Shown here: positions 22,511 to 38,013 of the stretch, one piece after another
Numbering within the stretch: position 1 is the stretch's first letter
Layout of the letters: every line of letters begins with the position of its first letter
NCBI RefSeq assembly: GCF_029855045.1
Contig: NZ_CP123228.1
Span: forward strand, 62,001 to 126,000
From: Piscinibacter sp. XHJ-5
Lineage (GTDB): Bacteria; Pseudomonadota; Gammaproteobacteria; Burkholderiales; Burkholderiaceae_C
Length of the DNA: 64,000 nucleotides
Direction of reading: 5' to 3'
Made by a program: the position numbers and the translations under genes
Notes under the pieces: model-generated
Told to the model about the DNA's origin: nothing
Seen by the model: the letters and a program-made list of their open reading frames with translations, nothing else
Database searches by the model: none

Positions 22511-23280
22511 TCGAGGTCCACAGCCTCGCCAGGCAGTTCGTGGTGCCGGCCGCCCCGTTCAGGCGCGTGCCCGCGCAGGTGGTGAAGGCGGTGCAGGACG
22601 TGAGCTTCACCGCGAAGGACGGCCACATCACCGGCCTGCTGGGCCCCAACGGCGCCGGCAAGACGACCACCTTGCGCATGCTGGCCGCGCTGATCGCGCC
22701 CGATGCAGGCCGCATGGCGGTGGACGGCATCGACGTGGTGTCGCGGCCGCGGGAGGCGCTGGCGCGCATGGGCGTGCTGAGCGATGCGCGCGGGCTGTAC
22801 CCGCGCCTGACCGCTCGCGAGAACATCGTCTACTACGGCGCGCTGCAAGGCATGTCGCGCGATGCCGCGCATGCACGCGCCGAGGCGCTGGCCCGGCTGC
22901 TGGAGATGACCCCGCTGCTGGAGCGTCGCACCGAGGGCTTCAGCCAGGGCGAGCGCATGAAGACGGCGCTGGCGCGCGCGCTGGTGCACGACCCCGCCAA
23001 CATCGTGCTCGACGAGCCCACCAACGGCCTGGACGTGCTGGCCACGCGCGCGCTGCGCGAGGCGCTGCGCCTGCTGAGCACGCCCGAAGGCGGCGCCAAG
23101 TGCATCGTGTTCTCCACGCACATCATGCAGGAGGTGGAACGCCTGTGCGACCGCGTCGTGCTGGTGTCGCACGGCCGCACCGTGGCCACCGGCAGCGTGG
23201 CCGAGCTCCTCGCGCAGACCGGCCAGCGCGACTTCGAGGAAGCCTTCGTGCAGCTCGCCTTCGGCCCCCTGCCTTCGTAG
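22507..23280 (+). CDS. ABC-2 type exporter ATP-binding protein (NatA-like)
   Basis: 257 residues. Walker A GPNGAGKTT (about 45-53), signature FSQGERMKTALARAL, Walker B NIVLDEPTNGLD and H-loop FSTH are all intact. The set matches the ATPase of NatAB-type Na+ or drug export systems. The cognate permease follows 43 bases later on the same strand. Confidence 0.88.
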   Translation: MIEVHSLARQFVVPAAPFRRVPAQVVKAVQDVSFTAKDGHITGLLGPNGAGKTTTLRMLAALIAPDAGRMAVDGIDVVSRPREALARMGVLSDARGLYPRLTARENIVYYGALQGMSRDAAHARAEALARLLEMTPLLERRTEGFSQGERMKTALARALVHDPANIVLDEPTNGLDVLATRALREALRLLSTPEGGAKCIVFSTHIMQEVERLCDRVVLVSHGRTVATGSVAELLAQTGQRDFEEAFVQLAFGPLPS

Positions 23281-23323
23281 GCGGGATGGCCAGCCCCACA
23301 CCCGTTGCCACGCCGCGCCCACC

Positions 23324-25225: not shown

Positions 25226-25600
25226 CTACGCTGCAGCCCTATGCAGGGCACGCTGTACCTCCGATTGCCACGGCAAGGTGTGAACAATCTCGTTGAGGTG
25301 AAGCACCGCCTGCATGCTGGGCAAGACTTCACCGTCTGCGTCCGTTAGTTGCAGGTTTGTCACTAGCGCAAGCGGGTCCGCCATTGCCACGACCCCGCTC
25401 TGAATCTCGATCCAGTCCCACGCTACCCCGGCCGCAAGATCGGCCGACGGGTTGCCCCACACAGTTTGCCCACTGCATGGCTGATGTGAGTCAGCCGCGG
25501 TGAACACTCGTGTGCCAAGATGTACAAAATGCAGATCTGGGGCGCACTCGGCCTGCCACAATACGGGCGGCCAAGCGCACACAATCCAAGCGGGTGTCAT
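25226..25600 (-). CDS. Hypothetical protein, divergent from luxR-A
   Basis: 124 residues, not assigned to a known family. It is Trp-rich with a pattern (GVAWDWIEIQSGVVAMADPLALVTNLQL, LNEIVHTLPWQ) that reads like a genuine conserved soluble domain. It ends against the acetyltransferase gene (convergent, 5-base gap). Its start faces luxR-A across 155 bases that contain the lux-box-like element at 25694-25713, so it could belong to the same regulon. Confidence 0.5.
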   Translation of the reverse strand: MTPAWIVCAWPPVLWQAECAPDLHFVHLGTRVFTAADSHQPCSGQTVWGNPSADLAAGVAWDWIEIQSGVVAMADPLALVTNLQLTDADGEVLPSMQAVLHLNEIVHTLPWQSEVQRALHRAAA

Positions 25601-25677: not shown

Positions 25678-25697
25678 ATCTGTAAATCCTTGCACCT
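25678..25697. promoter_or_regulatory. Degenerate lux-box-like element upstream of luxR-A
   Basis: ATCTGTAAATCCTTGCACCT keeps CTGTAA and the spacing of the full box but has CAC instead of CAG. It overlaps the full box at 25694-25713 by four bases, so the two form a tandem 16-base repeat. Confidence 0.4.
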
Positions 25698-25713
25698 GTA
25701 ATCCCTTGCAGGT
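25694..25713. promoter_or_regulatory. Lux-box-like operator of luxR-A
   Basis: ACCTGTAATCCCTTGCAGGT is a dyad with the lux-box core CTG-N10-CAG and near-canonical ACCTGT/CAGGT ends, 41 bases before the luxR-A start. It shares CTGTAA-N7-CAG with elements before the peptide gene (26498-26517) and the exporter (36641-36660). Confidence 0.6.
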
Positions 25714-25754
25714 TCAGTCGCGGCTCATTTGCGTCCCGAGGTAAGGCGAGTCCA

Positions 25755-26468
25755 ATGCTTCAAGGTGGTTTCACGTCGGTGCTGCAAGTGAAGAGCCGCG
25801 ACGAGCTGCTGGCAGAAGTCGTGGGGTTCACAAGAAGGCTCGGCTTCGAGACGGTCAACGTCACGGCTGTTGTTGATCGCTTCCGCGGTGAGTCGGATTT
25901 CGTTTGGGTCAACAATGCGCCGAGTGCGTACCGGCAGTTATCTGAGACGGTAGAGGAGGGTCGTCGTGATCCCGTCGCCCAGCACTGCAAGCGCGCAAGT
26001 GTCCCAATCATTTGGAATCAAGACACCTATACATCTTGCGGTTTGGGTGAGAAGTGGGAAGTCCAAGCTCGCTTCGGTTATCGCACGGGGATTGCTCTGG
26101 CACTCCACCTGCCTGAGGGCCGGCACTTCTTCATTGGTGTGGATCGCGATCAAGCTCTTCCGAACAGTTCGGCGGAAGTCACTCGACTCGTTGCAGACCT
26201 CCAGCTATTCGCAGTGCATGCACAGGATGCCGCCTTGCGTGTGCTGGTGCCACCCCCACCACAGATGGACTTTCCCAGCTTGACCCCCAGAGAACTGGAG
26301 GGCTTGCGGTGGACCATGGAGGGCAAGACAGCGTGGGAGGTGGGCAACATCCTCGGCATCAGCGAACGAACGGCGGTGCTGCACATCAACAACGCCACTC
26401 ACAAGCTCGGATGTGTCAACAAACATCAGGCAGTCTTGAAAGCTTTACGATTGGGACTAATCCGATGA
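25755..26468 (+). CDS. LuxR-type regulator A (autoinducer-binding-like domain plus HTH)
   Basis: 237 residues. An autoinducer-binding-like domain (about 15-165) is followed by a LuxR/FixJ HTH (about 176-236: LTPRELEGLRWTMEGKTAWEVGNILGISERTAVLHINNATHKLG). Of the acyl-homoserine-lactone pocket residues known from TraR, Asp (D72), Pro (P73), Trp (W87) and Gly (G112) are kept. The positions of TraR W57 and Y61 are Tyr59 and Ser63. No luxI is in the window, so it is a solo regulator with a possibly altered ligand. It is the closest intact luxR to the peptide gene downstream and has a lux-box-like site in its promoter. Confidence 0.85.
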   Translation: MLQGGFTSVLQVKSRDELLAEVVGFTRRLGFETVNVTAVVDRFRGESDFVWVNNAPSAYRQLSETVEEGRRDPVAQHCKRASVPIIWNQDTYTSCGLGEKWEVQARFGYRTGIALALHLPEGRHFFIGVDRDQALPNSSAEVTRLVADLQLFAVHAQDAALRVLVPPPPQMDFPSLTPRELEGLRWTMEGKTAWEVGNILGISERTAVLHINNATHKLGCVNKHQAVLKALRLGLIR

Positions 26469-26497
26469 TGCCGAGGCGGTAGATGGCGACGGGCGCA

Positions 26498-26517
26498 AGC
26501 TGTAAGACTTGACAGTT
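26498..26517. promoter_or_regulatory. Lux-box-like operator of the peptide gene
   Basis: AGCTGTAAGACTTGACAGTT has the core CTG-N10-CAG, 73 bases before the peptide ATG. A -10-like TGCAAT (26539-26544) begins about 31 bases from the box centre, the geometry of a LuxR-activated promoter with the box replacing the -35. Confidence 0.55.
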
Positions 26518-26548
26518 ACGCCCTGAGTCTCTTGTTGGTGCAATGCCG

Positions 26549-26567
26549 ACACGCGCAAAACGCGTGT
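26549..26567 (+). promoter_or_regulatory. Stem-loop in the leader of the peptide gene
   Basis: ACACGCG-CAAAA-CGCGTGT, a perfect 7-base stem with a 5-base loop, followed by TCTTG. It lies 22 bases before the peptide ATG, between the predicted -10 and the ribosome site AGGAG (26579-26583), so it would be in the 5' untranslated region. It could act in RNA stability or as a weak terminator of luxR-A read-through. Confidence 0.45.
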
Positions 26568-26589
26568 TCTTGCAACTCAGGAGTCCGAC

Positions 26590-26733
26590 ATGTCGCAACA
26601 GCAAATCCCGGCCGTCCCGCAGCAACAAGCCAAGACATCGACCACTCCCACTGCGCCGCTGCCTATCGATTTGACTCTTCTTTCCAAGATCTGCGGCGGG
26701 ACGGCAACCTCGACGCCGACGCCAACTTGGTGA
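26590..26733 (+). CDS. Small double-glycine leader peptide precursor (47 residues)
   Basis: ATG at 26590 follows AGGAG by six bases. The polar Gln/Pro/Thr-rich start is followed by PIDLTLLSKICGG, a double-glycine leader end. Counting back from the cut, Gly-Gly at -1/-2 and hydrophobic residues at -4 (Ile), -7 (Leu) and -12 (Ile) fit the C39 peptidase recognition pattern; the common acidic residue at -8 is Leu here. Cleavage after Gly37 would release TATSTPTPTW, a ten-residue Thr/Pro/Trp peptide. It sits 121 bases after luxR-A on the same strand, behind a lux-box-like site. A C39 exporter is encoded 10 kb downstream. Whether it is a signal, a bacteriocin or something else is unknown; no immunity gene is evident. 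Confidence 0.6.
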   Translation: MSQQQIPAVPQQQAKTSTTPTAPLPIDLTLLSKICGGTATSTPTPTW

Positions 26734-27104
26734 GTCTTGATCTTCGGTCCGAAGGGCGAGGCTAGGGCCTCCGCGGTCGCTCGCTGCCCAGGCGCCTACC
26801 CGCCCAGTGCCCAAGTCGTAGGCCCGTCCCGCACGCGGCCTGACGACCGGCAGGGGGCGTTCTCTCTCGGACAGACGCCTGCGCAAGGCCCGCAGGCTTC
26901 TGTTCGTGCTATCGGTCGAACGCGCTTCACTATGTCGACGGTGGGTGCATAGCGTCGACGTGCGGCGTAGACACTGCAGCGCCCGCCATGTAAGCAACTG
27001 GCGGGGCGTCGGCAGGACGTCCGCTGATACGGAGCCCCCAACTATGACGGAAGGGCTTCGTGGCGCCGGCGGCTCCCCGCGCCAACTTGGCCGTCGCGAT
27101 AGAC
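26734..27104. other. Intergenic stretch without a recognisable gene
   Basis: Open frames occur on both strands but none shows a ribosome site, a known motif or consistent codon use. A short Arg-rich plus-strand frame around 26875-26940 could be a scrap of a mobile element gene but is too short to name. It separates the peptide gene from the decayed luxR-B. Confidence 0.4.
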
Positions 27105-27461
27105 CGCAGCGAATGCTCAGTTTGGGTAAGCCGAGCCCAGCCTCCGGCGAGAGCATGCGCTGCGCATGCGTCCCAAAGACCCCAATGTCCAGCACCGTCC
27201 AAGTCTCTTCGCCACTGTTGGAGTGGTATTGCACTGTCTCGATCGACGCCGAACAGAATGTGCTTGCGGAGTGCGTGGCGACGGCAATCTCCGCCTTGTA
27301 TCCGAAGGCGGCCTGGTGTTCCCTGCGCCTTGTCGATGACGGCAATGGCCTGAACGAGTTCGAGACTTCTGATCTGCGGAAACCGCAACATTTGATCATG
27401 GAGCTCATCTAGGGTGCTCGCGTAGGCGCGTAGGAGCAAGTGTGAAGTCGTGATGCAGCAT
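27105..27461 (-). pseudogene. Decayed LuxR-type regulator B
   Basis: A disrupted copy of luxR-C starting (ATG 27461) three bases beyond the luxR-C stop. Homology is split over frames: TLDELHDQML...LVQAIAVIDKAQG in one, EHQAAFGYKAEIAVATHSAS and then LGLPKLSIR in another, and FGVDRD in the first again. Paralog LuxR-C reads EHQAAFGYKAGIAVAMH and LDLPKLSVR at these places. The pocket middle (DP...W) is deleted and the HTH is absent. This looks like a tandem duplicate of luxR-C that then decayed. Confidence 0.75.
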
Positions 27462-27463
27462 GG

Positions 27464-28174
27464 TCAGCCAAGGATCCCAAGACGCAGTGCCTTCAAGACA
27501 GCTTGCAGCTTGTTAATGCAACCAAGCTTTTGCGTGGCGTTGTTGATGTGGCGAGCCGCCGTTTGCTCTGTGATCTTCAGAATTTGGCCAAGCTCCCAGG
27601 CCGTCTTGCCTTCCATGGTCCAGCGAAGGCACTCCAGTTCGCGTACGCTTAGTTTGGGCAAGTCGAGGTCGGTTTCCGGCAAGAGGATGCGCAATGCGGC
27701 CTCCTGTGCGAACACAGCAAACAACTGAATATCCGCAACCGTGCGGGTCAACTCGCCGCTGTGCGATGGGAGCGGACCATCGCGATCCAAGCCGATGAAG
27801 TAGTGCCTTCCATTCGGCATGTGCATCGCGACAGCGATCCCGGCCTTGTATCCGAACGCCGCTTGATGTTCCCAGCGTTCTCCCAGATCCGCGGACACAT
27901 ACGTTTGCTGCCCCCAGACGATAGGGGTGCCGTGGTGTTTGCAGTGCTGCATCACGGGATCACGACGGGCCAGCTCAAGATTCATGAATGTCTCGAGGTA
28001 TAGCGGTGGCGAGTTGTGCAAAACGATGAAGCTAGGCTGCGCAAGCGGACTGTCGATAACGGCCATGGTGCTAACCAGGTCGAAGCCGTTGCAGCGGGCA
28101 AACTTTAAGACCTCCCTAAGAAGATCATCTCGACTACGGGCTCCGAGGACGGATGTGAACTTTGAGGTCAACAT
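27464..28174 (-). CDS. LuxR-type regulator C
   Basis: 236 residues from ATG 28174, chosen by alignment with its paralogs, which all begin ML..(F)TSVL. It has an autoinducer-binding-like domain and a C-terminal LuxR HTH (LSVRELECLRWTMEGKTAWELGQILKITEQTAARHINNATQKLG). DP, Trp and Gly of the ligand pocket are kept. The TraR W57 and Y61 positions are Tyr and Phe. No convincing ribosome site precedes the start. Upstream a CTG-N11-CAG element (one base longer than a lux box) is present near 28226-28242. Confidence 0.82.
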   Translation of the reverse strand: MLTSKFTSVLGARSRDDLLREVLKFARCNGFDLVSTMAVIDSPLAQPSFIVLHNSPPLYLETFMNLELARRDPVMQHCKHHGTPIVWGQQTYVSADLGERWEHQAAFGYKAGIAVAMHMPNGRHYFIGLDRDGPLPSHSGELTRTVADIQLFAVFAQEAALRILLPETDLDLPKLSVRELECLRWTMEGKTAWELGQILKITEQTAARHINNATQKLGCINKLQAVLKALRLGILG

Positions 28175-28368
28175 TGTCGTGTCTGCTGCTTTGCCGCTAT
28201 TGGGGATGAGTCTCAATCGCTAGTCTGTTCAATACGGCCAGCTTTGTTGACGCGACTGAGCGTCTGCGTCGCGTTGGCGGGTGTCGACCCTCTGTCCGCT
28301 GCTCCTACTAGTGCCGAGAATGCGGCTGGGGTCCAACGCACCCAAGCCCCTCTGCCTTCCAAGCATCA

Positions 28369-29076
28369 TCAGGCGATGATTCCCATGCGAAGGGCTCTAA
28401 TCACTGCGTGATGCTTGCTCACACAATCCAACTTTCGCGTCGCGTTGCTAAGATGTCTGGCCGCGGTCTGCTCGCTGATATTCAGTATTCGGCCAATCTC
28501 CCAAGCGGTCTTACCTTCCATCGTCCAACGTAGGCTCTCTAGTTCGCGAGGAGTCAGGCACGGTACATCGCCTGCATAAACCGCAGCGGAAAAAATGCGG
28601 AAAGCTGCATCTGCTGCATGCACTGCAAACAGTTGAAGCTCCGCGGTCATGCGTGTCACCTCGAGAGGGCTGGCTGGTAGGGGCTGATCGCGATCAACGC
28701 CAATTACAAAGTGGCGTCCCCGCGGAAGATGTAGGGCGCAGGCGACTCCTGTTTTGTAGCCGAATGACGCTTGTTCCTCCCACTTCGTTTCTGCCCCGGC
28801 ACTCACATAGGTAGCCTTGTCCCACACTATCGGCACGTTCGAGTGCTTGCAATGCTGCATGACCGGATCTGATCGACCCTGTGATCCTCGCCTCTGATCA
28901 AACGCGGCGGGCGCGTTGGATGCCCCGATGAACGATGCATCACCCTGGGCTCCATCAATGACGACATACGCGTCGACAGTGTCGAAGCCGAGGCAGTTTG
29001 CGAAGCCGACAACTCTTCGCAGGAACTCTGCGCGATCCTTGGCATTGAGGACCGATGTGAAGACATCCACCAACAT
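28369..29076 (-). CDS. LuxR-type regulator D
   Basis: 235 residues, paralogous to A and C along its whole length (MLVDVFTSVLNAKDRAEFL start, RSDPVMQHCKHSNVPIVW pocket segment, HTH with MEGKTAWEIGRILNISEQTAARHLSNATRKL). The loop before DP is one residue shorter than in A and C, so the pocket aromatic residues are shifted. It is on the same strand as C, separated by 194 bases without another gene. Confidence 0.82.
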   Translation of the reverse strand: MLVDVFTSVLNAKDRAEFLRRVVGFANCLGFDTVDAYVVIDGAQGDASFIGASNAPAAFDQRRGSQGRSDPVMQHCKHSNVPIVWDKATYVSAGAETKWEEQASFGYKTGVACALHLPRGRHFVIGVDRDQPLPASPLEVTRMTAELQLFAVHAADAAFRIFSAAVYAGDVPCLTPRELESLRWTMEGKTAWEIGRILNISEQTAARHLSNATRKLDCVSKHHAVIRALRMGIIA

Positions 29077-29447
29077 GAGGTTCCGCTATGACAAGGATTG
29101 CGCGCCGCTCGCACAAACAGACCGGCCGTGCGCGCTTTGCTTCTCTCTTTTGGATTGGGGCGCTGGCCGAACACGGCGTGCGTCGAGAGACGCCTGAACG
29201 ACCGCTCTGAGGCTCTTGCCGCGCTTAGCTGTGTGTTCGTCTGGGACGGGGCGTGAGCACTGTCCTCGCTTGCCCATCGCTATCGAAAGTTGTCGACCAA
29301 GGGGATCTGGATACGTCGCGATCAATATTGCTTGCCCGAAAGGCGTATCGTCGTCACAGGTCGTCCATATCAGCGCGGGCAATCGACCGAACGGTCGTGT
29401 TGGGCACCCCGATGATTTTTTGTGTAGATGTTGCGTATGAGCCTCTC
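29077..29447. other. Intergenic stretch between luxR-D and decayed luxR-E
   Basis: No supported gene. A minus-strand open frame (29086-29382) lacks a ribosome site and known motifs. CGACCG-TT-CGGTCG near 29386-29399 is a short inverted repeat of unknown meaning. Confidence 0.4.
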
Positions 29448-30140
29448 CTAATTAATCAGGCCAAGACGGAGCGCCTTCGCGACTGCTTGATGCTTATTCA
29501 CACAATTCAGCTTGCGCGTAGCGTTGTTGATATGTCTCGCCGCTGTTTGTTCGCAAATCCCGAGGATCCTTCCAAGCCCTCAGGCCGTCTTTCCGTCACA
29601 GGTCCAGCGGAGCACCTCCAACTCACGAACCGTCATCTTGGGTATGTTTAGCTCCGGGGAAGACGGCAGCAGAACGCTCATTGCGGCGTCTACCGTATAC
29701 ACGTGAACAATTGCAACTCAGCGGTCATGCGAGCAAGCTCACCTCCCGCACGTGGGCAATGCATGGTCCCGATCCACGCCGTGCGGCAGGTGCAGTGCGC
29801 ACACTATTCCGGTCCGATAGCCAAAGGAGGCCTGCTCCTCCCAGCCGTCTATACAACCCGCCGTCGCATAGGTGTTCCTATCCCAGACGATTGGTAAGAA
29901 GGAACGTTTGCAGTGTTGCATGACGGGATCGCGCTGATGCGTTGCGGCGTCCCGCCGTTCATCGAAGTCGGCGGGTGCGTTGTGAACTCCGACGAACTCA
30001 GGCGGAGCCTGGGGTCTGTCAAACACTGCAAACGCGTCGACTGTCTTGAAGCCCAGGTCCGCCGCAAGGCGAACCGTTTCATGCATGAATTGTTCACGGG
30101 ACGCGACGTTCAGAAGAAAAGTGAATCTGTCCAGAAGCAC
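29448..30140 (-). pseudogene. Decayed LuxR-type regulator E
   Basis: The first 130 codons are intact (MLLDRFTFLLNVASREQFM..., RDPVMQHCKRSFLPIVW, EEQASFGYRTGIVCALHLPHG). The frame then loses a few codons before VDRDHALP and shifts at least twice around 29690-29740. The HTH region is readable in another frame (PKMTVRELEVLRWTCDGKTA-stop-GLGRILGICEQTAARHINNATRKLNCVNKHQAVAKALRLGLIN). The conserved Trp of the KTAW motif is a TGA stop. The good conservation outside these lesions implies recent inactivation. Confidence 0.85.
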
Positions 30141-30380
30141 GGCGTCAAAGCTGCAGCAAGGGGTGTGGCCGGATCAAGCCTGGCAAGAGGGCGGCCTGCG
30201 ATTTGGATTCGCTTCCGCGCGCATGCTCGGCAAGTAGTCGACAGAGATGCGACGCCAATCCTCTGGAGCAATGCAACTCATGTCAATGACGGTGCTCTGA
30301 CGTTGCGCTGACGGCTGGAATCCACATCCCCTCGTTGACCAGCATCGCCCCGTTGGTCCCATTTGCCCGGGAGTTGGTCC

Positions 30381-30455
30381 ACAAAACGACTCGCAATGGT
30401 GCAAGACGAGCTGCAAGCCGTGGTGAAGGCCTTGCGCATGGGATTCATCCACTGA
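30381..30455 (+). pseudogene. C-terminal scrap of another LuxR paralog (F)
   Basis: The plus-strand frame ends DELQAVVKALRMGFIH followed by TGA. This matches the last helix of the neighbouring regulators (KHQAVLKALRLGLI) with a preceding TKRLAMV like the ATRKLNCV segment. Nothing upstream in any frame continues the homology, so only about 24 codons remain. Confidence 0.6.
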
Positions 30456-30811
30456 CCCAGTGCGAGCCGCCAGCACCGCGTCTTGGCAGATTTCAAGCAG
30501 CAGTGCGCTTGGGTTTGTCTAGCTGACAGCGTCTCGCTTCAACTTCAGGCGCTTTCCGGCGAGCGCGGTGCGGCGGCGTGCGCCTCACGGGTTGTTGGCC
30601 TCTGCCGTGGGACATGGCCGTTGTATGTCAAATCTGCCACGTTCCGAGCGTTTGATGCCGCGGGAGACCGCGTGGGTTCATCAAGCACGCTTCGCTGCCG
30701 TTGTCAATGACAAGCGTTTGTCATTGTTCGCACGCCGCTCCCGCGATGGAATCCAGCCAGAGGTAGGCGCGTTCCGCGCGCTTGGGAAGCGAACAACGTC
30801 ATCAGTGACAC
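30456..30811. other. Intergenic stretch holding a 20-base palindrome
   Basis: No supported gene. Its one clear structure is the palindrome at 30706-30725, described separately, which lies about 90 bases before the next gene. Confidence 0.5.
30706..30725. promoter_or_regulatory. Perfect 20-base palindrome (candidate LuxR-type operator)
   Basis: AATGACAAGCGTTTGTCATT has perfect 8-base arms around GCGT. The preceding TTGTCA (30701-30706) forms a second, overlapping dyad with TGACAA. Size and symmetry match a lux box, but the arms differ from the CTGTAA boxes in this region. It is upstream of the gene pair at 30812 and 31197, so it is a good candidate target of the regulator at 31197. Confidence 0.5.
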
Positions 30812-31219
30812 ATGATGAACAACGACGAAACGTCCACAGTTCCGGCGGGTGCCGACCCCGGTATCACGCCTGCCGCCGCGCCACGCGAGCCGCGCGATTT
30901 GTCCGTCCTGCGACCCGAGGCTTTGCCATGCGGGCAGACCGCGATGGCGCCGCCGCCTGCCCCGATCGGCATCTGCAGCGGCGACGGGGTCCTGTCGTTC
31001 GCGTTGACCAGCACGTCGCCCGGCGTTCATGTCAAGCGCACGCTGCGCCGCGCGGACGGAAGCAAGCTGCTCTGCTCGGTGGTCTTTCGCGACGAGCTGA
31101 GCTTCACGAGCTGGCTGGACGCCGACGACTTGCGGTTTACGTACGCGCTGTTGTTCCAGCAACTTCGAAGCAGCTTTCGCCGGCTTAACGTCTCGGATGT
31201 CGGCGATGGCCGCCGCTGA
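30812..31219 (+). CDS. Hypothetical small protein preceding luxR-G
   Basis: 135 residues. The first about 45 residues are Ala/Pro-rich and disordered. The remainder (GDGVLSFALTSTSPGVHVKRTLRRADGSKLLCSVVFRDELSFTSWLDADDLRFTYALLFQQL) looks like a small alpha/beta domain of unknown family. It overlaps the next gene by 23 bases, so translation is likely coupled with the regulator. No signal peptide. The start may be either of two adjacent ATGs; no strong ribosome site. Confidence 0.5.
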   Translation: MMNNDETSTVPAGADPGITPAAAPREPRDLSVLRPEALPCGQTAMAPPPAPIGICSGDGVLSFALTSTSPGVHVKRTLRRADGSKLLCSVVFRDELSFTSWLDADDLRFTYALLFQQLRSSFRRLNVSDVGDGRR

Positions 31220-31955
31220 ACCGCTCATGGCGTCGCCCGGCGCGCTTGAGCGCGCCAGCGAAGCCATCTGTCGAATTGCGGCCGCGCGCAACGAAGGCGA
31301 GGTGGTCGGGCTTCTGAGCGACGCGTCGCACCGGCTCGGCGCGGACGTGGCGCTTTTCTGCTCATGCCTGCAAGCCAAGGGGGTGCCCTTGCGGTTCATG
31401 CTGGCGTGCGACCCCCGTTGGTACCTGGAATATGAGCGCTTCATCAACTGGAGCCAGGATCCGTGGGTGCTGTACGCAGCCGAAAGCGCCGAACCTGTTT
31501 GCGCCTCGCGCTTGATGGTGACGTCGCAGGCCGGCAGTCAGGCGCTCGCATTGGCTAGGCGCTATGGATTCGAGTCGGCGTTCGTCGTACCTTCGCCAGC
31601 CGGCCGCGGTGAAGCGCGGTGGGGCGTCCTCGTACTCGGGTCTCGCACGGACGGGTTCTTCGAAAGCGCTGGCTGCATTGCACTGAAGGTGATGGCGCGC
31701 TCGCTGTCGATGGAGCTCCACGAGTGGTGTCTGTCACATGCGAGGCGCGATTTCCTGTCCCGTGCGCAGCTGTCGTCCCGGGACATCGATCTGCTGCGTC
31801 GAGAGCACCGAGGCTACAGCACGAAGGAGATCGCTCGCCAGTTGCACGTCACCGTGCAATCCGTCGACTCGCGATTCCAGCGGCTCAATGCGCGTCTGGG
31901 CGTTTCCAGCAGAAAGGCGGCTGCGTCGCTGGCTGTCACGTACGGCTTGATCTAA
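31197..31955 (+). CDS. LuxR-type regulator G, not part of the A-F paralog group
   Basis: 252 residues from ATG 31197 (further ATGs at 31206 and 31227). N-terminal about 180 residues resemble an autoinducer-binding-like sensor domain (CDPRWYLEYERFINWSQDPWVLYA, YGFESAFVVPSPAGRGEARWGVLVLGS). The C-terminal HTH (LSSRDIDLLRREHRGYSTKEIARQLHVTVQSVDSRFQRLNARLG) lacks the WTMEGKTAWE signature of the array paralogs. It lies 15 bases before the di-haem peroxidase gene and is probably the regulator of that operon. Confidence 0.75.
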   Translation: MSAMAAAEPLMASPGALERASEAICRIAAARNEGEVVGLLSDASHRLGADVALFCSCLQAKGVPLRFMLACDPRWYLEYERFINWSQDPWVLYAAESAEPVCASRLMVTSQAGSQALALARRYGFESAFVVPSPAGRGEARWGVLVLGSRTDGFFESAGCIALKVMARSLSMELHEWCLSHARRDFLSRAQLSSRDIDLLRREHRGYSTKEIARQLHVTVQSVDSRFQRLNARLGVSSRKAAASLAVTYGLI

Positions 31956-31970
31956 GACGGCGGCGACTGC

Positions 31971-33137
31971 ATGAGGCAGCTCACAGGCGCCAAAACTGAG
32001 CGCGCGAATCGGCAGGTCGAGTGCGCGGTGCTCCCAGCAGGTTCGGTGCTGCTAGCCCTCCGTGCTGCGTGCACACTCCTGGCTGCGTTGATTGCCGCGC
32101 CGGCGGGGGCGGCGGATTCATCGCTTGTCACGGCCCAGGGCGATACGTTCACACTCGTTGCAGGCCATCCGAGCCTCAAGCGCTGGCTCATGCCGCGTGA
32201 GATCCCGGCTCCCGCCGACAACGCCACGACACCCGAGCGAATCAAGCTGGGCGAGATGCTGTTCTTCGATGCCCGCCTGTCAGTGCATGGGTACACGAGC
32301 TGTGCCATGTGTCATTTGCCTGAGCGTGGGTTTGCGGATGGCGTTCCCACCTCGGTGCGTTTCATGGGCGAAAAGATGACGCGCAACTCGCCGGGCCTGG
32401 TGAACGTGGCGTACAACCCACTGCACATGTGGGACGGGCGCAATGCCACGCTCGAACAGCAAGCTCTGAGTTCCCAGAGTTCCCTGGGCAGCCTGAATGC
32501 CGGCGCCCATCAGCTCGGCATCACGGAGGCGGATCTCGGCATGGAGCGGATCAGGCGCAACGTCGCTTATGCAAGAGCGTTCGCCAAGGCATATCCCGAC
32601 GAACCGATTACGAAGCAAACAGCGGCCAAGGCGATCTCGGCGTTCGAGCGATCCCTGGTGTCGCGCGACTCGCCATTCGACCGGTGGGTGCAAGGGGACG
32701 TGCACGCCATGACGGCGAGACAGGTCAATGGCTTTCGAATCTTCCTCGATCCATCAAAGGGAAACTGCGTCGCTTGCCACGCTGCGCCGAACTTCACCGA
32801 CAACGGCTTCCACAACCTCGGCCTCAGGCAATTCGGGCAACCCGATCCCGACGTGGGGCGCTTCAGCCAGCGGGCAATTCCATCCATGCGGGGAGCCTTC
32901 CGCACGCCGACGCTTCGCGATGTCGATCTCACACCGCCGTACTTCCACGACGGCTCGGCCAACACGCTGTGGGACGTCGTCGAGCACTACGCCCGCGGAG
33001 GCGACGCCAGGGCGAATCTCTCACCGCTAATCAGGCCGCTTGCGATCACCGCGGAGGAAAAGGCGGACCTGGTGTCATTCATGAAGGCGCTGACGACCCG
33101 GCGCGATGTGTATGCAACCCCGCGCCTGCCGCGCTGA
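31971..33137 (+). CDS. Di-haem cytochrome c peroxidase / MauG family protein
   Basis: 388 residues with a signal sequence (an unusually long N-region, hydrophobic core about 29-45, AGAADSS cut). Two CxxCH haem sites, CAMCH and CVACH, lie in the two cytochrome c lobes. The linker ends typical of CcpA/MauG are present (MWDGRNATLEQQA, FRTPTLRDVDLTPPYFHDGS). It acts in the periplasm, either reducing peroxide or oxidising a protein partner. It is followed 27 bases later by a cupredoxin gene, a likely electron partner. Confidence 0.87.
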   Translation: MRQLTGAKTERANRQVECAVLPAGSVLLALRAACTLLAALIAAPAGAADSSLVTAQGDTFTLVAGHPSLKRWLMPREIPAPADNATTPERIKLGEMLFFDARLSVHGYTSCAMCHLPERGFADGVPTSVRFMGEKMTRNSPGLVNVAYNPLHMWDGRNATLEQQALSSQSSLGSLNAGAHQLGITEADLGMERIRRNVAYARAFAKAYPDEPITKQTAAKAISAFERSLVSRDSPFDRWVQGDVHAMTARQVNGFRIFLDPSKGNCVACHAAPNFTDNGFHNLGLRQFGQPDPDVGRFSQRAIPSMRGAFRTPTLRDVDLTPPYFHDGSANTLWDVVEHYARGGDARANLSPLIRPLAITAEEKADLVSFMKALTTRRDVYATPRLPR

Positions 33138-33164
33138 CGCAGCGGCACTTCTCCGGAGCGCTCC

Positions 33165-33494
33165 ATGAACGCCAGCACGCTCACACTTTCCATTCATGTT
33201 GCGCTCGCGCTGTTCTCAGCGGCTTCGGTATCGGCTGCCGATCATTCAGTCGTGCAGCGCAACAAGGCGTTTGCCGTCAGGCGACTGGTTGTCAATGTCG
33301 GCGACACGATCAAGTTCGTCAATTTGGACGACGTGCCACACAACGCCTTTTCGCTCGCGAACGGTAATGTCTTCGATACCGGCATGTTGACGAAAGGAAA
33401 CTCGAAGGACATCACTTTCACCAAATCGGGGATTGTCGAAGTGGAGTGTGCCGTTCATCCATTGATGACGATGACGGTGGAAGTGCGCCCCTAG
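33165..33494 (+). CDS. Cupredoxin (plastocyanin/amicyanin-like), periplasmic
   Basis: 109 residues with a signal peptide (ALFSAASVSAAD). The type 1 copper ligands are all in place: His of VPHNAF, then Cys, His and Met of VECAVHPLMTM. It is a small blue-copper electron carrier, and its position after the di-haem peroxidase suggests it donates or accepts electrons for that enzyme. Confidence 0.88.
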   Translation: MNASTLTLSIHVALALFSAASVSAADHSVVQRNKAFAVRRLVVNVGDTIKFVNLDDVPHNAFSLANGNVFDTGMLTKGNSKDITFTKSGIVEVECAVHPLMTMTVEVRP

Positions 33495-33607
33495 TCATGT
33501 CGACGGGGACGCAGCGGCGCGATTGCGATGATTCTTCGCGCAAAGTCATCACGTGGCGATCAGCCATCTCCATCTATCGTTTGACTTCGTACTGAGGTAC
33601 TGAATGA

Positions 33608-34570
33608 ATGCCAATGTCGAGGTCGAGCGAAATGCGCAAACTGTTCCGAGTGATCTCTTTGATGGCGGCTGCCGCAGCAGTCATGGTGTGCTCGTTTCAT
33701 GCTGCCGCGGCAGGCGCCACGAAGTTTGAAGAGCCGCTGCTGCTTGGCATCAACGAGGGGGCAACGGACAGCCGAAGCGCCGATGACTTGCGTCGGCAGT
33801 ACGCATCCCTCGCCAAGGTGCTGGCGCGAATTGCGGGCAAATCGGTGATCGTCGAGCCTTATGTCGACGTCGCCCTCTTTCGCAAGAAGTTTGACGAAGG
33901 CGCGTTCCACTTTGCCTTCGGGAAATCCGTTCATGTGGTCGCCAAGGGCGTCGTTGGGGGCAAGTACGTACCGTTGGTCAAGAACGAACGGGCGTACGTT
34001 GCGGGCGTCGTTGTACAGAAGGGTTCGACGATCAAAGATTTGAGGGGCCTGCGCGGCAAGACGCTGGTCTTGCCGCCTGCCGATACCTACACCTCGGCGC
34101 TGGTCGAAACATTGATCAACGAGCTCGGCCTACCGTTCGTCGTACAAAACGAAACCACGGGCTATGCGCCTCCACGGCCGGACACCATCGCCATTCGGCA
34201 CTTTCGCATTCAGGACAATGTTGCGAAGTCGGTCGCGGTGGGGTTGTTTCCCGCCGGTGCCGTGAATCCGTCGGTGTTGGCGCGTGTCGAGAAACAGGCC
34301 AGCGAGGGCGGCATCCAGTGGAAGGACACTGAACTCATCGTGGGCGGGCCCGGCGTCCAAGTCCTCACCAAATTGAAGCCCCAGACGGGCTGGCTGCTGG
34401 TCGGCAGTGCGGAGCTCCCGCCTCAAGTCATCGAGCGCGCCACGGCGACCCTTTCCGCGCTGTCCACGCACGAGGAGGGCAAGCAGGTGCTGAAAGACAT
34501 CGGCTGTGCAAACCTGGTCCGGTCGACGAAGGAGGAATACGTCGCGCTGATCAATTACCTCTACCACTGA
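33608..34570 (+). CDS. PhnD-like periplasmic binding protein
   Basis: 320 residues (or 312 from the internal ATG 33632, which starts a cleaner signal peptide ending at HAAAAGA). The type 2 periplasmic-binding fold of the phosphate/phosphonate-binding group is seen (GINEGATDSRSADDL, DVALFRKKFDEGAFHFAFGKSVHV, then LRGLRGKTLVLPPADTYTS). No ABC ATPase or permease genes accompany it, so it may feed a sensor instead of a transporter, perhaps the membrane protein encoded next. Confidence 0.75.
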   Translation: MPMSRSSEMRKLFRVISLMAAAAAVMVCSFHAAAAGATKFEEPLLLGINEGATDSRSADDLRRQYASLAKVLARIAGKSVIVEPYVDVALFRKKFDEGAFHFAFGKSVHVVAKGVVGGKYVPLVKNERAYVAGVVVQKGSTIKDLRGLRGKTLVLPPADTYTSALVETLINELGLPFVVQNETTGYAPPRPDTIAIRHFRIQDNVAKSVAVGLFPAGAVNPSVLARVEKQASEGGIQWKDTELIVGGPGVQVLTKLKPQTGWLLVGSAELPPQVIERATATLSALSTHEEGKQVLKDIGCANLVRSTKEEYVALINYLYH

Positions 34571-34630
34571 GCGGCCGCGATGAGCGCACCGTAGCGTTCG
34601 TGGGCAAGGTGAACCTGGCACGCAGGCGGC

Positions 34631-35692
34631 ATGAACATCCGTGGACGGTCGATTCGGCGGGCCTTTCTCTCACGAAGCCTTGGGGTCCAGTTCGTCGTTC
34701 TTGCCGTTGCGTTCGGGATCGCGATCGGCGGCTTGGGCGCCATGGCAAGAAATGAGTTGGAGCGTGGCCACGCCCTGACTCGAGCGCGGACGATCGCTGT
34801 GATGGCAGAGGCCTTGGCGATTTGGTCCGGCCGGTACCGCAGTCTCTGGGTGCACAACGACCCGCTCGACCCTGTACCCGAACTGGGCGAATTTCTGGAT
34901 CACCGACAAGCGCGTCCATCGGTGTCCGACGTCAGGCAAGGCACAGGGGCAGCGGCATCCCGGGTGCTTTCATCGGTAGATGTCGCGGAGAACGGGGGGA
35001 GCTTTCATCGCAAGGTTCCCGCACTGATACAGCGAGAAGTCGCACAAGTGTTTGGCGCGCTGTCGTCTGGCGAACGCTTTCGCATGACCAGTGATCGCCT
35101 GCTCGATCCGCGGAATGCGCCCAACCGGTTCGAGCAGGCGGCCATCGAGCGGCTTCGGTCGGCTCGCAAGGGGGGTGCCGAATATCAAGAGACGGTGGGT
35201 GGGCAACTGCTGTATGCACGGTCACTGTCCCCGTACTCAATATGCCTGCACTGTCACGCCAAGTCGGACCTCGAGGCCTCTGCCGCGATGAGCAAGGACG
35301 CAGGATCGGGTGTCGGCGCGGCCGGGCAAGAGACGTTCGCCGGAATTGTCAGCGTATCGGTTCCCCTCGATGGCGCAGCTATGAATCTTCCGGCCCAGGG
35401 ACTTGCGACATGGCTGCTGGCGGTGCTTGTGCCCGCCGGCTGGGCGGCGCTGGCGCTGTGGCTTCACCGCGTGGTGGTTCGACGTGCCGAGGCGCTGGTG
35501 AGCCATGCACGTGGAGTCCTTGCGGAAAGCGAGATGGCGCCAAATGTGATTGCGGATGCTGCGCCGGAGGCACATCCCACACGCAACGAAATTGACAGGC
35601 TGGGGGCCGCGGTCAGGTTGCTATGCAGGGCAATCCACATGTCGATTCATGGACAACGGCGTGGCGCCCCTGATCGGCTGGACGGCTCTTGA
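34631..35692 (+). CDS. DUF3365 (Tll0287-like) haem membrane protein with HAMP-like end
   Basis: 353 residues. Membrane helix about 16-38, then a periplasmic DUF3365 domain with a c-type haem site CLHCH near residue 203, a second helix at about 257-280, and a short cytoplasmic tail. The tail pattern (RRAEALVSHARGVLAESE ... RNEIDRLGAAVRLL) resembles a HAMP linker. The protein stops there, without a kinase, cyclase or chemotaxis output domain. It is the last gene of the 31971-35692 operon. Confidence 0.75.
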   Translation: MNIRGRSIRRAFLSRSLGVQFVVLAVAFGIAIGGLGAMARNELERGHALTRARTIAVMAEALAIWSGRYRSLWVHNDPLDPVPELGEFLDHRQARPSVSDVRQGTGAAASRVLSSVDVAENGGSFHRKVPALIQREVAQVFGALSSGERFRMTSDRLLDPRNAPNRFEQAAIERLRSARKGGAEYQETVGGQLLYARSLSPYSICLHCHAKSDLEASAAMSKDAGSGVGAAGQETFAGIVSVSVPLDGAAMNLPAQGLATWLLAVLVPAGWAALALWLHRVVVRRAEALVSHARGVLAESEMAPNVIADAAPEAHPTRNEIDRLGAAVRLLCRAIHMSIHGQRRGAPDRLDGS

Positions 35693-35745
35693 AAGGAGGG
35701 GGCACGACGCGAACCAATTGCCGTGGACACATCAGTGACCCTAGC

Positions 35746-35770
35746 CCGAAGCACTGGAATAGTGCTTCGG
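35746..35770 (+). terminator. Stem-loop after the DUF3365 gene, probable transcription end
   Basis: CCGAAGCACT-GGAAT-AGTGCTTCGG, perfect 10-base stem with a 5-base loop, 53 bases after the operon's last stop. No T tract follows, so termination would be weak or need Rho. Confidence 0.5.
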
Positions 35771-36439
35771 CCCTGCGCGTAGCCGCAACGTCCCGCAGGG
35801 GCATTTCGGCGGTTTGCGTTTGATCTCCCAGCGCGCATGTCCCTGCAGCGCCCGGCGGGACAGGCGCGTTCCACCGCTGCGTGCGGCCTGCCATGCCCGC
35901 AGCGGGCGTCGCCCGGATCGCCATCGGCGGCGATTCGGGCGGGGGCAAGGGCACCGGGCCAATACGGCAGGAGGAATCCGGTGACCCTCTTTGCTCGTCC
36001 GTGCGCGGCAGCTTCAATAGCGGTCTCCGCCGTCAGGATGGTCGACCGGAAGAGGGTGACGTCCCTCGCGTGTCGGCTGAAGCCAAGACGATGCTGATCT
36101 TGATGCGCTGAGACTGACCTTCGGCATCCCAGAGAAAGAGCAATGAGACCCGGCGCCGTTGGCGAACGCATCACCTCTTTGTTGGAAACAGGATCGCCTC
36201 CTTGGTGTCCAGTGAACCCGCGGTGAGCAAGGCGCCATTGCCCACTGCGATGCACGCGACGCCGGAAGCGAGGAACACCCGCGATTCGCCTCGAACGCCT
36301 CGAGGCTCGGCCACATGACCTTCGGCGTGCCTCGACATCGGTGCGTTCCACCCTTTCGGCGCGGCACGGCTCGCGCCGGCTAGGCGACCGGGGTTGGACG
36401 GCGCGTGGGCTGCGGCCGAAGGGGAAGAATCACCGCGCG

Positions 36440-36616
36440 ATGCGGCCCCGCATTCGAGATCGCAACGGCGGCTTGTCCGGCGGCAAGTTCGACGTTCAGC
36501 TGGACATGGCCCGGGCCACTGTTCGGGCGGCCGTTTTCGCCGTGCTGCCGTCGGGCCCGCAGTCCATGCGCGATGGCGTCGTCGGATTGCGAATGGTGTT
36601 GCGGAAGTACTGGTAG
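36440..36616 (+). CDS. Possible small protein upstream of the exporter (doubtful)
   Basis: 58 codons from ATG 36440 with high third-position GC. A GGLSGG motif occurs near the start but the preceding residues are basic, not a proper double-glycine leader. The antisense strand reads equally well, and the ribosome site is poor. Recorded because it directly precedes the exporter operon. Confidence 0.2.
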   Translation: MRPRIRDRNGGLSGGKFDVQLDMARATVRAAVFAVLPSGPQSMRDGVVGLRMVLRKYW

Positions 36617-36640
36617 GCGGCGTCGCAGCCATCGCGCGTT

Positions 36641-36660
36641 GCCTGTAATGACTTCCAGTT
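36641..36660. promoter_or_regulatory. Lux-box-like operator of the CvaAB exporter
   Basis: GCCTGTAATGACTTCCAGTT, core CTG-N10-CAG, identical to the luxR-A box at 15 of 20 positions. It lies 84 bases before cvaA. A -10-like GATACT (36683-36688) begins about 32 bases from the box centre, the same geometry as at the peptide gene. Confidence 0.55.
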
Positions 36661-36744
36661 GCGCCCGGGCAGCCGGGCTGGCGATACTGACAACAGGGCC
36701 CGGCAGTCCGAGCCGGTCTTCCATCGCGTCCATCCGCCGCACCG

Positions 36745-38013
36745 ATGCCCAGCCTGTTCCGCCCCGAAGTCATCGAAGGCCGTCAACAAGCCTGGCTCGG
36801 CAGCATCCAGCTCGTCCGCCCCGTTCCGCTCGCGGTCCTGACGCTCCTGGTGGTCGCCATCGCCGTCCTGGTCGGGACGTTTCTCTTCGAGGGCCGCTAC
36901 ACGCGCAAGGCGCACATCACCGGCTACCTGGTGCCCGACCGCGGCGTGAAGCGGCTGGTGCCTCCGCAGTCCGGCATCGTCACTGACAGCCGCGTGGTCG
37001 AAGGCCAGCCGGTTCGCCAGGGCGACGTGCTGTTCGTGCTGTCGGTGGAGCGCGCCTCGCTGCACGGTGACACGCAGGCGGCGGTGCAGCAGAGCATGGC
37101 GGCCCGGCGAGATAGCCTGCAGGAGTCGTCCCGCCGCACCGCGCAGATCCGCCGGGAGCAGGGCGCTTCGTTGCAGCGCCAGGTCGATGCGATGCGTGCC
37201 GAGCTCACGCAGATGGAGGCCGAGGCGCAGGTGATGGGACAGCAACTCGCGCTGCGCCGGCAGGACGTGGAGCAGTACGAGGCGCTGATGAAGAGCGAGA
37301 GCTTCGTGTCGCCGGCGGCGCTGCGAACCAAGAAGGCCGACATGCTGGAGGTGGAAGGCCGCCTGCACGCGCTGCGCGTCAAGCAGGCCGCGCACCAGCG
37401 CGAGATCGCGGCGCTGGAGGCACGGCGGCGCGAGCAGCCGCTGATCGCCCAGGCCGCGCTGGCCGAGATCGACCGCGAGCTGGCCACGCTGTCCGAAGCC
37501 TCGGCCGAGAGCGAAGCCAAGCGCACGGTGGTGATCCGCGCGCCGGAAGACGGTGTGATCACCGCGGTGCTGGCCGACAAGGGGGCCGCCGTGTCGCCCG
37601 CCGCGGCGATCGCCAGCCTGGTGCCGGCCGGCGCGCAGCTGCGCGCCGAGCTGTTCGCGCCGTCGAGCGCGGTGGGCTTCGTGCGGCCGGAGCAGCAGGT
37701 GCAGCTACGCTACCAGGCCTTTCCGTACCAGAAGTTCGGCCACCACGCGGGCCAGGTGCTGCAGGTCTCGCGTACGCCGCTGCAGGCCACCGAGCTGGCC
37801 GGGCTACCGCTGCGCGAATCGGTGAAGGGCACGCCGCAGGCCGAGCCGCTGTACCGCATCACCGTCCAGCTGGACAAGCAGTCGGTGCCGGCCTATGGCC
37901 AGGCCCAGCCGCTGGCCGCCGGCATGCAGCTCGAGGCCGATGTGCTCTTGGACCGGCGACGCCTCATCGAATGGATCTTCGAGCCGCTGCTGAGCGTGAC
38001 CGGTCGCGTGTAG
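36745..38013 (+). CDS. HlyD-family adaptor of a double-glycine peptide exporter (CvaA-like)
   Basis: 422 residues. A cytoplasmic N-terminus, one membrane helix (about 28-47) and a lipoyl half (GYLVPDRGVKRLVPPQSGIVTDSRVVEGQPVRQGD) are followed by a long alpha-hairpin (about 105-255) and the second lipoyl half (IRAPEDGVITAVLADKGAAV). A beta-barrel domain completes it. This is the CvaA/MchE layout. It would join the ABC exporter encoded 40 bases downstream to an outer membrane TolC-type channel. No TolC gene is in the operon; the lipoprotein at 8530-9972 belongs to the RND pump. Confidence 0.87.
   Translation: MPSLFRPEVIEGRQQAWLGSIQLVRPVPLAVLTLLVVAIAVLVGTFLFEGRYTRKAHITGYLVPDRGVKRLVPPQSGIVTDSRVVEGQPVRQGDVLFVLSVERASLHGDTQAAVQQSMAARRDSLQESSRRTAQIRREQGASLQRQVDAMRAELTQMEAEAQVMGQQLALRRQDVEQYEALMKSESFVSPAALRTKKADMLEVEGRLHALRVKQAAHQREIAALEARRREQPLIAQAALAEIDRELATLSEASAESEAKRTVVIRAPEDGVITAVLADKGAAVSPAAAIASLVPAGAQLRAELFAPSSAVGFVRPEQQVQLRYQAFPYQKFGHHAGQVLQVSRTPLQATELAGLPLRESVKGTPQAEPLYRITVQLDKQSVPAYGQAQPLAAGMQLEADVLLDRRRLIEWIFEPLLSVTGRV

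What the first reader, a model, noticed from the sequence alone, without database searches (positions are those of the whole stretch)
25694..36660. Lux-box-like sites tie a LuxR solo, a double-glycine peptide and a C39 exporter into one putative regulon
Three 20-mers share the core CTGTAA-N7-CAG and lux-box geometry (CTG-N10-CAG). One precedes luxR-A (25694-25713), one precedes the 47-codon peptide gene (26498-26517) and one precedes the CvaA/CvaB exporter (36641-36660). The boxes at the peptide and exporter genes have -10-like hexamers at the same distance (about 31-32 bases from the box centre). The exporter's peptidase is intact and the peptide has a matching leader. Inference: a LuxR-type regulator without luxI controls a small exported peptide and its processing machine. 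I know of no described system of this composition. I did not scan every coding position for the motif.
Basis: partly seen in the sequence, partly recalled or inferred. Interest (0 to 1): 0.88.

Follow-up and report, generated by a model that had tools for sequence, protein, structure and literature searches.

The report
LuxR locus with peptide replacing luxI
A soil-type bacterium and many of its relatives carry a quorum-sensing regulator whose partner gene does not make the usual chemical signal but a tiny exported peptide, and sequence evidence suggests that this peptide is the signal the regulator senses.

Summary
The three boxes are real: 3 in the window, 6 in the 6.65-Mb genome. In 80 relatives' loci found through LuxR-A alone, 129 of 130 CTGTAA-N7-CAG sites lie in the two short stretches flanking luxR. 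The downstream site has an extended -10 at fixed spacing (76 of 79), putting the box where class II lux boxes sit. It precedes a small gene, usually a double-glycine leader plus an xPxxxW core, and then the exporter. In the window and two congeners the exporter is separated but has its own box. No luxI was found in this genome. Leader and exporter are missing together while core and regulator stay. The core covaries with LuxR's ligand pocket; the leader does not. Best reading: a quorum-sensing locus in which a peptide pheromone and its exporter replace luxI, with the LuxR-type protein as receptor. The regulatory unit is near certain; peptide sensing is inferred (about 0.7), untested at the bench.

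The parts
25226..25600 (-). rsaM-like gene (DUF4902, PF16245; marginal score), 124 aa, divergent from luxR-A
   Evidence: tblastn hits in 79 of 80 relatives' loci, start within 300 nt of luxR in 78. Relatives P0027, P0039, P0044 and P0082 score over the PF16245 cut-off (they were picked for carrying that label; 6 of the 120 listed homologues do); the window protein scores 18.4 bits against a cut-off of 25. The profile's best PDB hit is 4o2h (BCAM1869), E 0.12, not significant alone.
25696..25711 (+). lux-box-like site in the rsaM/luxR divergent intergenic region
   Evidence: A CTGT[AC]A-N7-CAG site lies between the two start codons in 67 of the 79 loci with the rsaM-like gene. No fixed-spacing -10 in either direction.
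25755..26468 (+). luxR-A: Autoind_bind + GerE regulator, 237 aa
   Evidence: Pfam; PDB sequence hits RhlR, LasR, QscR, SdiA; AlphaFold2 mean pLDDT 88.9, best Foldseek hit QscR 6cbq.
26500..26515 (+). lux-box-like site of the peptide promoter
   Evidence: CTGT[AC]A-N7-CAG at this place in 78 of 80 loci.
26536..26544 (+). extended -10 TGGTGCAAT at box +36
   Evidence: TGnTnnAAT at exactly +36 in 76 of 79 peptide promoters, the window included.
26590..26733 (+). 47-codon peptide precursor, double-glycine leader
   Evidence: congener orthologues; leader hydrophobics at -4, -7 and -12 read from the sequence (criterion recalled); a word-based search of the large protein database returned only the window's own protein at E <= 1.
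26701..26730 (+). predicted mature peptide TATSTPTPTW (after the GG site), core TPTPTW
   Evidence: sequence; xPxxxW core conserved in relatives.
36643..36658 (+). lux-box-like site before the exporter
   Evidence: corresponding boxes before cvaA in both congeners, G197 and G096.
36683..36688 (+). weak -10-like GATACT of the exporter promoter (box +40)
   Evidence: in G197 and G096 TGTTGGAAT stands at +36.
36745..38013 (+). CvaA/HlyD-type adaptor
   Evidence: Pfam HlyD_3; shortly downstream of the peptide gene in 59 relatives' loci measured, median gap 83 nt.
38054..40195 (+). CvaB-type ABC exporter with intact C39 peptidase
   Evidence: Pfam Peptidase_C39 2-132/133, ABC_membrane, ABC_tran; 63-88% identical orthologues beside luxR in relatives.
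27464..28216 (-). luxR-C, paralogue of luxR-A (start codon uncertain; 27467-28180 was analysed)
   Evidence: Pfam; 58% identity to luxR-A.
28369..29076 (-). luxR-D, paralogue of luxR-A
   Evidence: Pfam; 59% identity to luxR-A.
29454..30140 (-). broken luxR paralogue
   Evidence: match to luxR-A with 3 TGA inside (G000:C1:91454-92131); only its open part was translated.

Best explanation
This is a LuxR-type quorum-sensing locus in which the AHL synthase gene is replaced by a ribosomal peptide signal and its exporter. LuxR-A binds the box that overlaps the -35 region of the peptide promoter (centre near -43) and activates the peptide gene and, directly or through the operon, CvaA/CvaB. CvaB removes the leader at Gly-Gly and exports the short peptide with the xPxxxW core. 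The peptide then re-enters neighbouring cells by an unknown importer, binds the LuxR ligand pocket and closes a positive loop. The divergent RsaM-like protein tempers the loop. Shown by sequence: the box-promoter unit, the gene set, its conservation, the lack of luxI, the joint absence of leader and exporter, and core-pocket covariation. Inferred: activation, processing, export, re-entry, ligand binding and the role of the RsaM-like protein.
For: Box placement: 129 of 130 exact sites in 80 loci (1.354 Mb) lie in the luxR-flanking windows, 0.03 expected from the rest. Promoter: TGnTnnAAT at +36 in 76 of 79. The composite promoter occurs 42 times in 37 of 200 family genomes, control 0; by comparing handles, all 37 are among the 53 with a LuxR-A relative (E <= 1e-40) and none among the other 147. 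Of the 42 sites, 35 adjoin luxR, 2 precede a separated exporter and 5 lie elsewhere. Peptide: leader + P..W ORF after luxR in 68 of 79 loci against 49 of 1975 random windows. Leader plus adjacent exporter 62, neither 9, leader without adjacent exporter 3, leaderless with exporter 0, among the 74 loci with room to tell (6 rows set as leader-bearing by hand; L042 and L113 had no called peptide and 4 had too little room). Pocket columns (list printed in PMC9654057) track the core: partial r 0.28, n=77, 0 of 1000 matched random column sets as high; with W-type cores and LuxRs at most 80% identical, n=41, r 0.165, 7 of 1000. Leader control r -0.07, 284 of 300 random sets as high, made with a recalled pocket list. 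RsaM-like gene divergent from luxR in 78 of 80. In 50 aligned LuxRs (47 relatives plus window A, C, D): LasR Y56 is T/A mostly, W60 is Y/F mostly, S129 is G mostly; D73 kept in 50.
Against: No binding, expression or export data exist. No importer was identified. The pocket set shifted by -2 also reached r 0.19 (1 of 300 matched sets as high), though shifts of -3, +2 and +3 did not stand out. Related sequences are not independent, and the matched-set control removes this only in part. The five loci without W are one clade, so their pocket changes are one event. In leaderless loci no export route is visible, so there the peptide might act inside the producing cell. Only 5 of 42 composite promoters lie away from luxR or the exporter, few targets for a quorum-sensing regulator. 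The RsaM assignment is marginal by score and its model was poor. The sign of the peptide's effect (agonist or antagonist) is not determined.
Confidence: 0.7

Rival explanations
1. LuxR-A senses an AHL or other small molecule from neighbours, and the exported peptide is the output, a small microcin-like antimicrobial.
For: C39/CvaAB-type exporters also serve class II microcins (recalled). D73, P74, W88 and G113 are kept in all 50 aligned LuxRs. RsaM genes are linked to AHL systems (PMC10710839, passages).
Against: Residues that make polar contacts to the AHL in LasR are mostly replaced. Between peptide stop and cvaA start the median is 83 nt in 59 loci, maximum 547, which leaves little room for an immunity gene. 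The core is kept where leader and exporter are missing and covaries with the LuxR pocket.
Confidence: 0.15
2. The peptide is a ligand of LuxR but an inhibitor: LuxR activates a gene for its own anti-activator, and export removes it.
For: Same covariation and co-conservation; the sign of the effect cannot be read from sequence.
Against: A dedicated peptidase-exporter is a costly way to remove a peptide. Multi-copy precursors (2-7 cores) suit a signal made in quantity. Leaderless versions lack the exporter beside them.
Confidence: 0.12
3. The boxes, small ORF and exporter are neighbours by chance in a conserved chromosomal region next to gidA.
For: The locus does often lie in a syntenic region (TAP-like hydrolase, NatA and NatB type genes upstream in 43 of 57 loci with room; gidA in 55 of 80).
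Against: Box and -10 conservation is far above the surrounding sequence. rsaM-like gene, luxR, box and peptide persist where the upstream genes are not found, e.g. L036, L038, L039. Three congeners have a box before a separated exporter. dN/dS is below 1.
Confidence: 0.02

Closest known systems
LuxI/LuxR quorum sensing with RsaM (tofI-tofM-tofR, btaI-rsaM-btaR type)
   Same: LuxR-type regulator, lux-box-like site at the neighbouring signal gene, RsaM-like gene beside luxR.
   Different: No luxI; a peptide precursor and C39 exporter stand in its place.
Divergent rsaM - luxR solo pairs, topology type 6a of Venturi et al. 2023 (PMC10710839, passages read), reported in Albitalea, Kinneretia, Pelomonas, Thauera, Xenophilus
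   Same: Probably the same gene pair; that paper's Table 1 lists Albitalea.
   Different: The word peptide does not occur in that text. The peptide gene, boxes and exporter are additional here.
PipR/OryR plant-signal LuxR solos (PMC4981722, abstract and discussion read)
   Same: LuxR solos that do not respond to AHLs; PipR responded to a tripeptide and the response needed an ABC transporter.
   Different: There the inducer is exogenous, and a later review passage gives an ethanolamine derivative as the PipR ligand (PMC10134790). Here a candidate peptide is encoded beside the receptor.
Rgg/SHP and other RRNPP peptide systems of Gram-positives (recalled; passage in PMC13220807)
   Same: Short peptide gene beside a cytosolic receptor-regulator.
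   Different: Receptor family is LuxR, host is Gram-negative, export by a C39/HlyD/ABC machine.
Class II microcins and other double-glycine peptides of Gram-negatives (recalled)
   Same: Leader, C39 peptidase, CvaA/CvaB-type exporter.
   Different: Core of about six residues, often repeated; no immunity gene seen; lux-box-like control.

Membership tests
LuxR family (autoinducer-binding regulators) | Autoind_bind plus GerE domains | tested here: met
   PF03472 E 4.4e-18 and PF00196 E 4.4e-14.
LuxI/LuxR AHL quorum sensing | luxI-type synthase in the genome | tested here: not met
   No PF00765 match in the window's genome at E <= 0.001; the same search found 13 genomes at E < 1e-20 among the 200, though it rang in none of the 14 control genomes.
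LuxI/LuxR AHL quorum sensing | conserved AHL-contact residues (LasR Y56, W60, D73, S129) | tested here: not met
   D73 in 50 of 50; Y56 in 0, W60 in 2 and S129 in 1 of 50. Column mapping from the phmmer alignment.
LuxI/LuxR AHL quorum sensing | binds an AHL | not testable with these tools
   needs purified protein.
lux-box class II activation | dyad CTG-N10-CAG overlapping -35, fixed distance to -10 | tested here: met
   peptide promoter, 76 of 79. Transcription start itself not mapped.
RsaM (DUF4902) | PF16245 match | tested here: inconclusive
   four relatives, chosen for the label, over cut-off; window protein 18.4 and L083 22 bits, under the cut-off of 25.
RsaM (DUF4902) | small protein encoded beside luxR and/or luxI | tested here: met
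   124 aa, divergent from luxR within 300 nt in 78 of 80 loci.
RsaM (DUF4902) | RsaM fold | tested here: inconclusive
   AlphaFold2 model mean pLDDT 40.7; PDB profile hit 4o2h at E 0.12 only; that 4o2h is RsaM is recalled.
PAB/OryR-PipR LuxR solos | proline iminopeptidase gene beside luxR | tested here: inconclusive
   an alpha/beta hydrolase with a TAP-like domain lies about 3.2 kb upstream of luxR-A, and a homologue upstream in 43 of 57 relatives, each time with NatA/NatB type genes; not adjacent, activity unknown.
Double-glycine peptides with C39 exporter | GG leader and peptidase-containing exporter | tested here: met
Class II microcin | antimicrobial activity with immunity gene | tested here: inconclusive
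   little room for an immunity gene between peptide and cvaA (median 83 nt); activity not testable here.
Known peptide families | Pfam or NCBIfam match of the precursor | tested here: not met
   six precursors, none over a curated cut-off; best XyeA E 0.04 for one of them.

The most novel reading that the evidence does not exclude
A LuxR-family receptor has switched from acyl-homoserine lactones to a self-encoded ribosomal peptide. In Sphaerotilaceae and relatives, rsaM-luxR-peptide-exporter is a complete Gram-negative peptide pheromone system. More distant LuxR relatives carry tiny leaderless peptide genes of the same style (LPKLGG, FPRVGF, LPRNGG), so a whole branch of LuxR solos would be peptide receptors with cognate peptides encoded next door.
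Probability: 0.62. Interest if true: 0.95.

Novelty: new variant of a known kind. Interest (0 to 1): 0.88.

Why it matters
Whether Gram-negative bacteria use double-glycine peptides as signals, and what the many LuxR solos sense, are long-standing questions. This locus gives receptor, candidate ligand, exporter, promoter and a possible modulator together. Of 200 family genomes sampled, 53 have a LuxR-A relative and 35 have the composite promoter beside it. Named culturable strains carry it, such as Albitalea terrae, Roseateles aquatilis and Rhizobacter sp. Root404. Each relative predicts its own hexapeptide, so the idea can be tested with synthetic peptides in a laboratory E. coli reporter.

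Tried and rejected
Genome-wide enrichment of the box word: rejected (6 hits against 18 for the reversed word); only position matters. Hidden luxI: none in this genome. Of the 45 genomes with LuxR-A at E <= 1e-74, 4 have luxI at E < 1e-20, 2 more have partial matches and 39 have none at E <= 0.001. A MauG/Trp-modifying role for the di-haem peroxidase at 31971-33137: dropped, no relative of it was found in the 80 loci at E <= 1e-8. Tailored RiPP: no supporting match and little room between peptide gene and cvaA; enzymes elsewhere not excluded. A second peptide gene beside luxR-C/D: the scan of 25-37 kb found none convincing. RsaM fold by AlphaFold2: model too poor, so no fold search was run. A broader distribution: of 274 class genomes only the window's own had a LuxR-A relative at E <= 1e-40 (2 of the other 273 are in the same family). 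The tree is the quick one, the careful search did not finish; leaderless loci need two changes there, but one origin is not excluded, and L113 was labelled leaderless although no peptide was called in it. L079's start codon and L113's peptide are unresolved. Rows dropped before counts: L042 (contig too short); L042, L085, L105 and L113 in the covariation (no strict six-residue core). Columns that hardly vary were not ranked. An earlier count gave 43 composite sites; the recount is 42.
Full report
What was checked. The box word is rare: 6 copies in 6,648,202 bases, three of them within 11 kb. All five matches of this genome to the autoinducer-binding domain lie in the window.

Conservation of the sites. 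Loci were collected by LuxR-A protein similarity only (the best 80 of 119). The box word was then scanned. Of 130 exact matches in 1,354,050 bases, 129 fall in the stretches just before and just after luxR (38,354 bases) and 1 elsewhere. Exact sites: 49 of 80 before and 73 of 80 after luxR; allowing CTGTCA: 68 and 78. The two misses after luxR are L042, whose contig ends 134 bases beyond luxR, and L102. In whole genomes of 15 relatives the word has 2 to 21 copies, each genome with at least one at the luxR locus (compared).

Promoter anatomy. After the downstream box, TGnTnnAAT stands at exactly +36 in 76 of 79. With a start about 7 bases past the -10, the box centre is near -43, where class II lux boxes sit (recalled). 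The box before luxR has no such element in either direction. In this genome the composite occurs twice: at the peptide gene and at C1:745291. In 200 family genomes it occurs 42 times in 37 genomes, 0 for the control. I compared coordinates: 35 adjoin luxR, 2 precede a separated exporter, 5 lie elsewhere (G000, G096 twice, G076, G013). All 37 genomes are among the 53 with a LuxR-A relative.

The exporter box. In most relatives luxR, peptide, cvaA and cvaB follow one another; the peptide stop to cvaA start is 83 nt at the median (59 loci). In the window about 10 kb separates peptide and exporter; in G096 about 13 kb and in G197 about 2 kb. All three have a box shortly before cvaA. In G197 and G096 it carries the full -10 at +36; in the window only a weak one.

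The peptide. Leader-bearing precursors are mostly 42-80 aa with a leader ending in Gly-Gly (or Gly-Ala) and one to five copies of xPxxxW; leaderless L108 has seven copies in tandem. Selection is purifying. Motif counts: 68 of 79 against 49 of 1975 random windows. Of the seven loci with neither motif, five form one clade with GG peptides ending LPRVGG-like, L105 has LPRGTW plus a short tail, and L113 is unresolved. Nine loci have short leaderless precursors (e.g. MQATHQTQTTTLLPRNGW). None of these nine has the exporter in the fetched stretch, while 62 of 65 leader-bearing loci with room do. The three exceptions are L037 (exporter 13 kb away), L039 and L114. On the quick tree leaderless loci need two changes.

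The receptor. LuxR-A is a normal LuxR-family protein in sequence and predicted fold. The residues that make polar contacts to the AHL in LasR are Trp60, Asp73, Tyr56 and Ser129 (PMC9654057, passage). Here Asp is kept in 50 of 50 aligned sequences and the others are present in 2, 0 and 1 of 50 (Trp60, Tyr56, Ser129). Pairwise differences in the core were compared with differences in pocket columns, controlling for overall ligand-domain divergence. The pocket beats all 1000 variability-matched column sets (r 0.28, n=77), and 993 of 1000 in the strictest subset (n=41). Leader differences show no such link (recalled pocket list). The four best single columns are LasR 50, 40, 70 and 105; 50, 70 and 105 are in the printed pocket list, 40 only in the recalled one. 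The clade without W has Met at position 39 (LasR 40) in 5 of 5 and in none of 76 others. A -2 shift of the pocket set also scored (1 of 300), so the test is good but not perfect.

The RsaM-like gene. The ORF at 25226-25600 on the minus strand has a homologue in 79 of 80 loci, starting within 300 nt of luxR in 78; a luxR-side box lies between the two start codons in 67. Four relatives with the label match DUF4902/PF16245 just over the cut-off, the window protein below it; 6 of 120 listed homologues carry the label. The profile's best PDB hit is 4o2h, E 0.12. Venturi et al. 2023 (PMC10710839, passages) state that rsaM genes always adjoin luxI and/or luxR, and list divergent rsaM-luxR solo pairs in Albitalea and others. 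Their text does not contain the word peptide. If the assignment holds, it argues that this is a quorum-sensing locus rather than a stray regulator.

luxI. None found in this genome. Of 45 genomes with LuxR-A at E <= 1e-74, 39 have no PF00765 match at E <= 0.001, 4 have a clear luxI and 2 partial matches.

Wider family. Eighteen more distant LuxR loci (39-53% identity; a few in the same chromosomal place) were read. Twelve have a tiny ORF shortly downstream ending in a [LFIS]PxxG motif, many with a ribosome-binding site by eye, e.g. MKVIDLICELLGLPKLGG and MTQSHSIAPAFPRVGF, against 47 of 4000 random windows. The motif was defined after looking, so this is a lead.

Mechanism and certainty. Co-regulation of peptide and exporter through the boxes: 0.95. 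The LuxR beside them as the regulator: 0.9 (composite in 37 of 53 genomes with it, 0 of 147 without). Export after GG cleavage where the exporter is present: 0.85. Peptide as ligand of the LuxR: 0.7. Agonist rather than antagonist: 0.8 given binding.

Print. Searches of an open-licence library without bioRxiv, seen as capped listings, showed no description of a LuxR regulator paired with a double-glycine peptide gene. PipR (PMC4981722) is the nearest experimental precedent found. Reviews PMC13220807 and PMC10134790 (passages only) do not mention such a system in what I read. Subscription papers were not searchable.

Noticed in passing
G000:C1:745291-745335 (L004/L210) and G096:C1:1342851-1342895 (L208): A second composite box + -10 promoter at what looks like the same genomic place in two congeners, with no clear ORF in its direction; a small RNA or short peptide may be expressed.
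   Followed up: partly
L209 (G096:C21:494890): A composite promoter whose -10 ends 41 nt before a gene that reads as a TonB-dependent outer-membrane receptor (by eye): a possible uptake route for the peptide.
   Followed up: no
L211 (G076:C11:825174): A composite promoter precedes another double-glycine peptide with three GFVLSE repeats, away from the main luxR.
   Followed up: no
L213-L229: Distant LuxR-A relatives have tiny leaderless ORFs ending LPKLGG, LPRNGG, FPRVGF, FPRTGW, FPVTGS shortly downstream.
   Followed up: partly
L145 9008-14196; L082 2-6908 and L147 10445-11722: Second, diverged CvaA/CvaB-like exporter genes sit beside arrays of luxR paralogues in Albitalea terrae and Methylibium rhizosphaerae.
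   Followed up: no
window 31197-34570: A LuxR with weak GAF similarity, a MauG-type di-haem peroxidase, a cupredoxin and a PhnD-like binding protein lie between the peptide gene and the exporter.
   Followed up: partly
window 26930-27439, minus strand: An ORF whose middle resembles part of luxR (HILFGVDRD), by eye; probably a luxR remnant.
   Followed up: no
window 21065-24487: TAP-like alpha/beta hydrolase and an ABC-2 transporter pair (NatA/NatB type, name recalled), found upstream of luxR in 43 of 57 relatives.
   Followed up: partly
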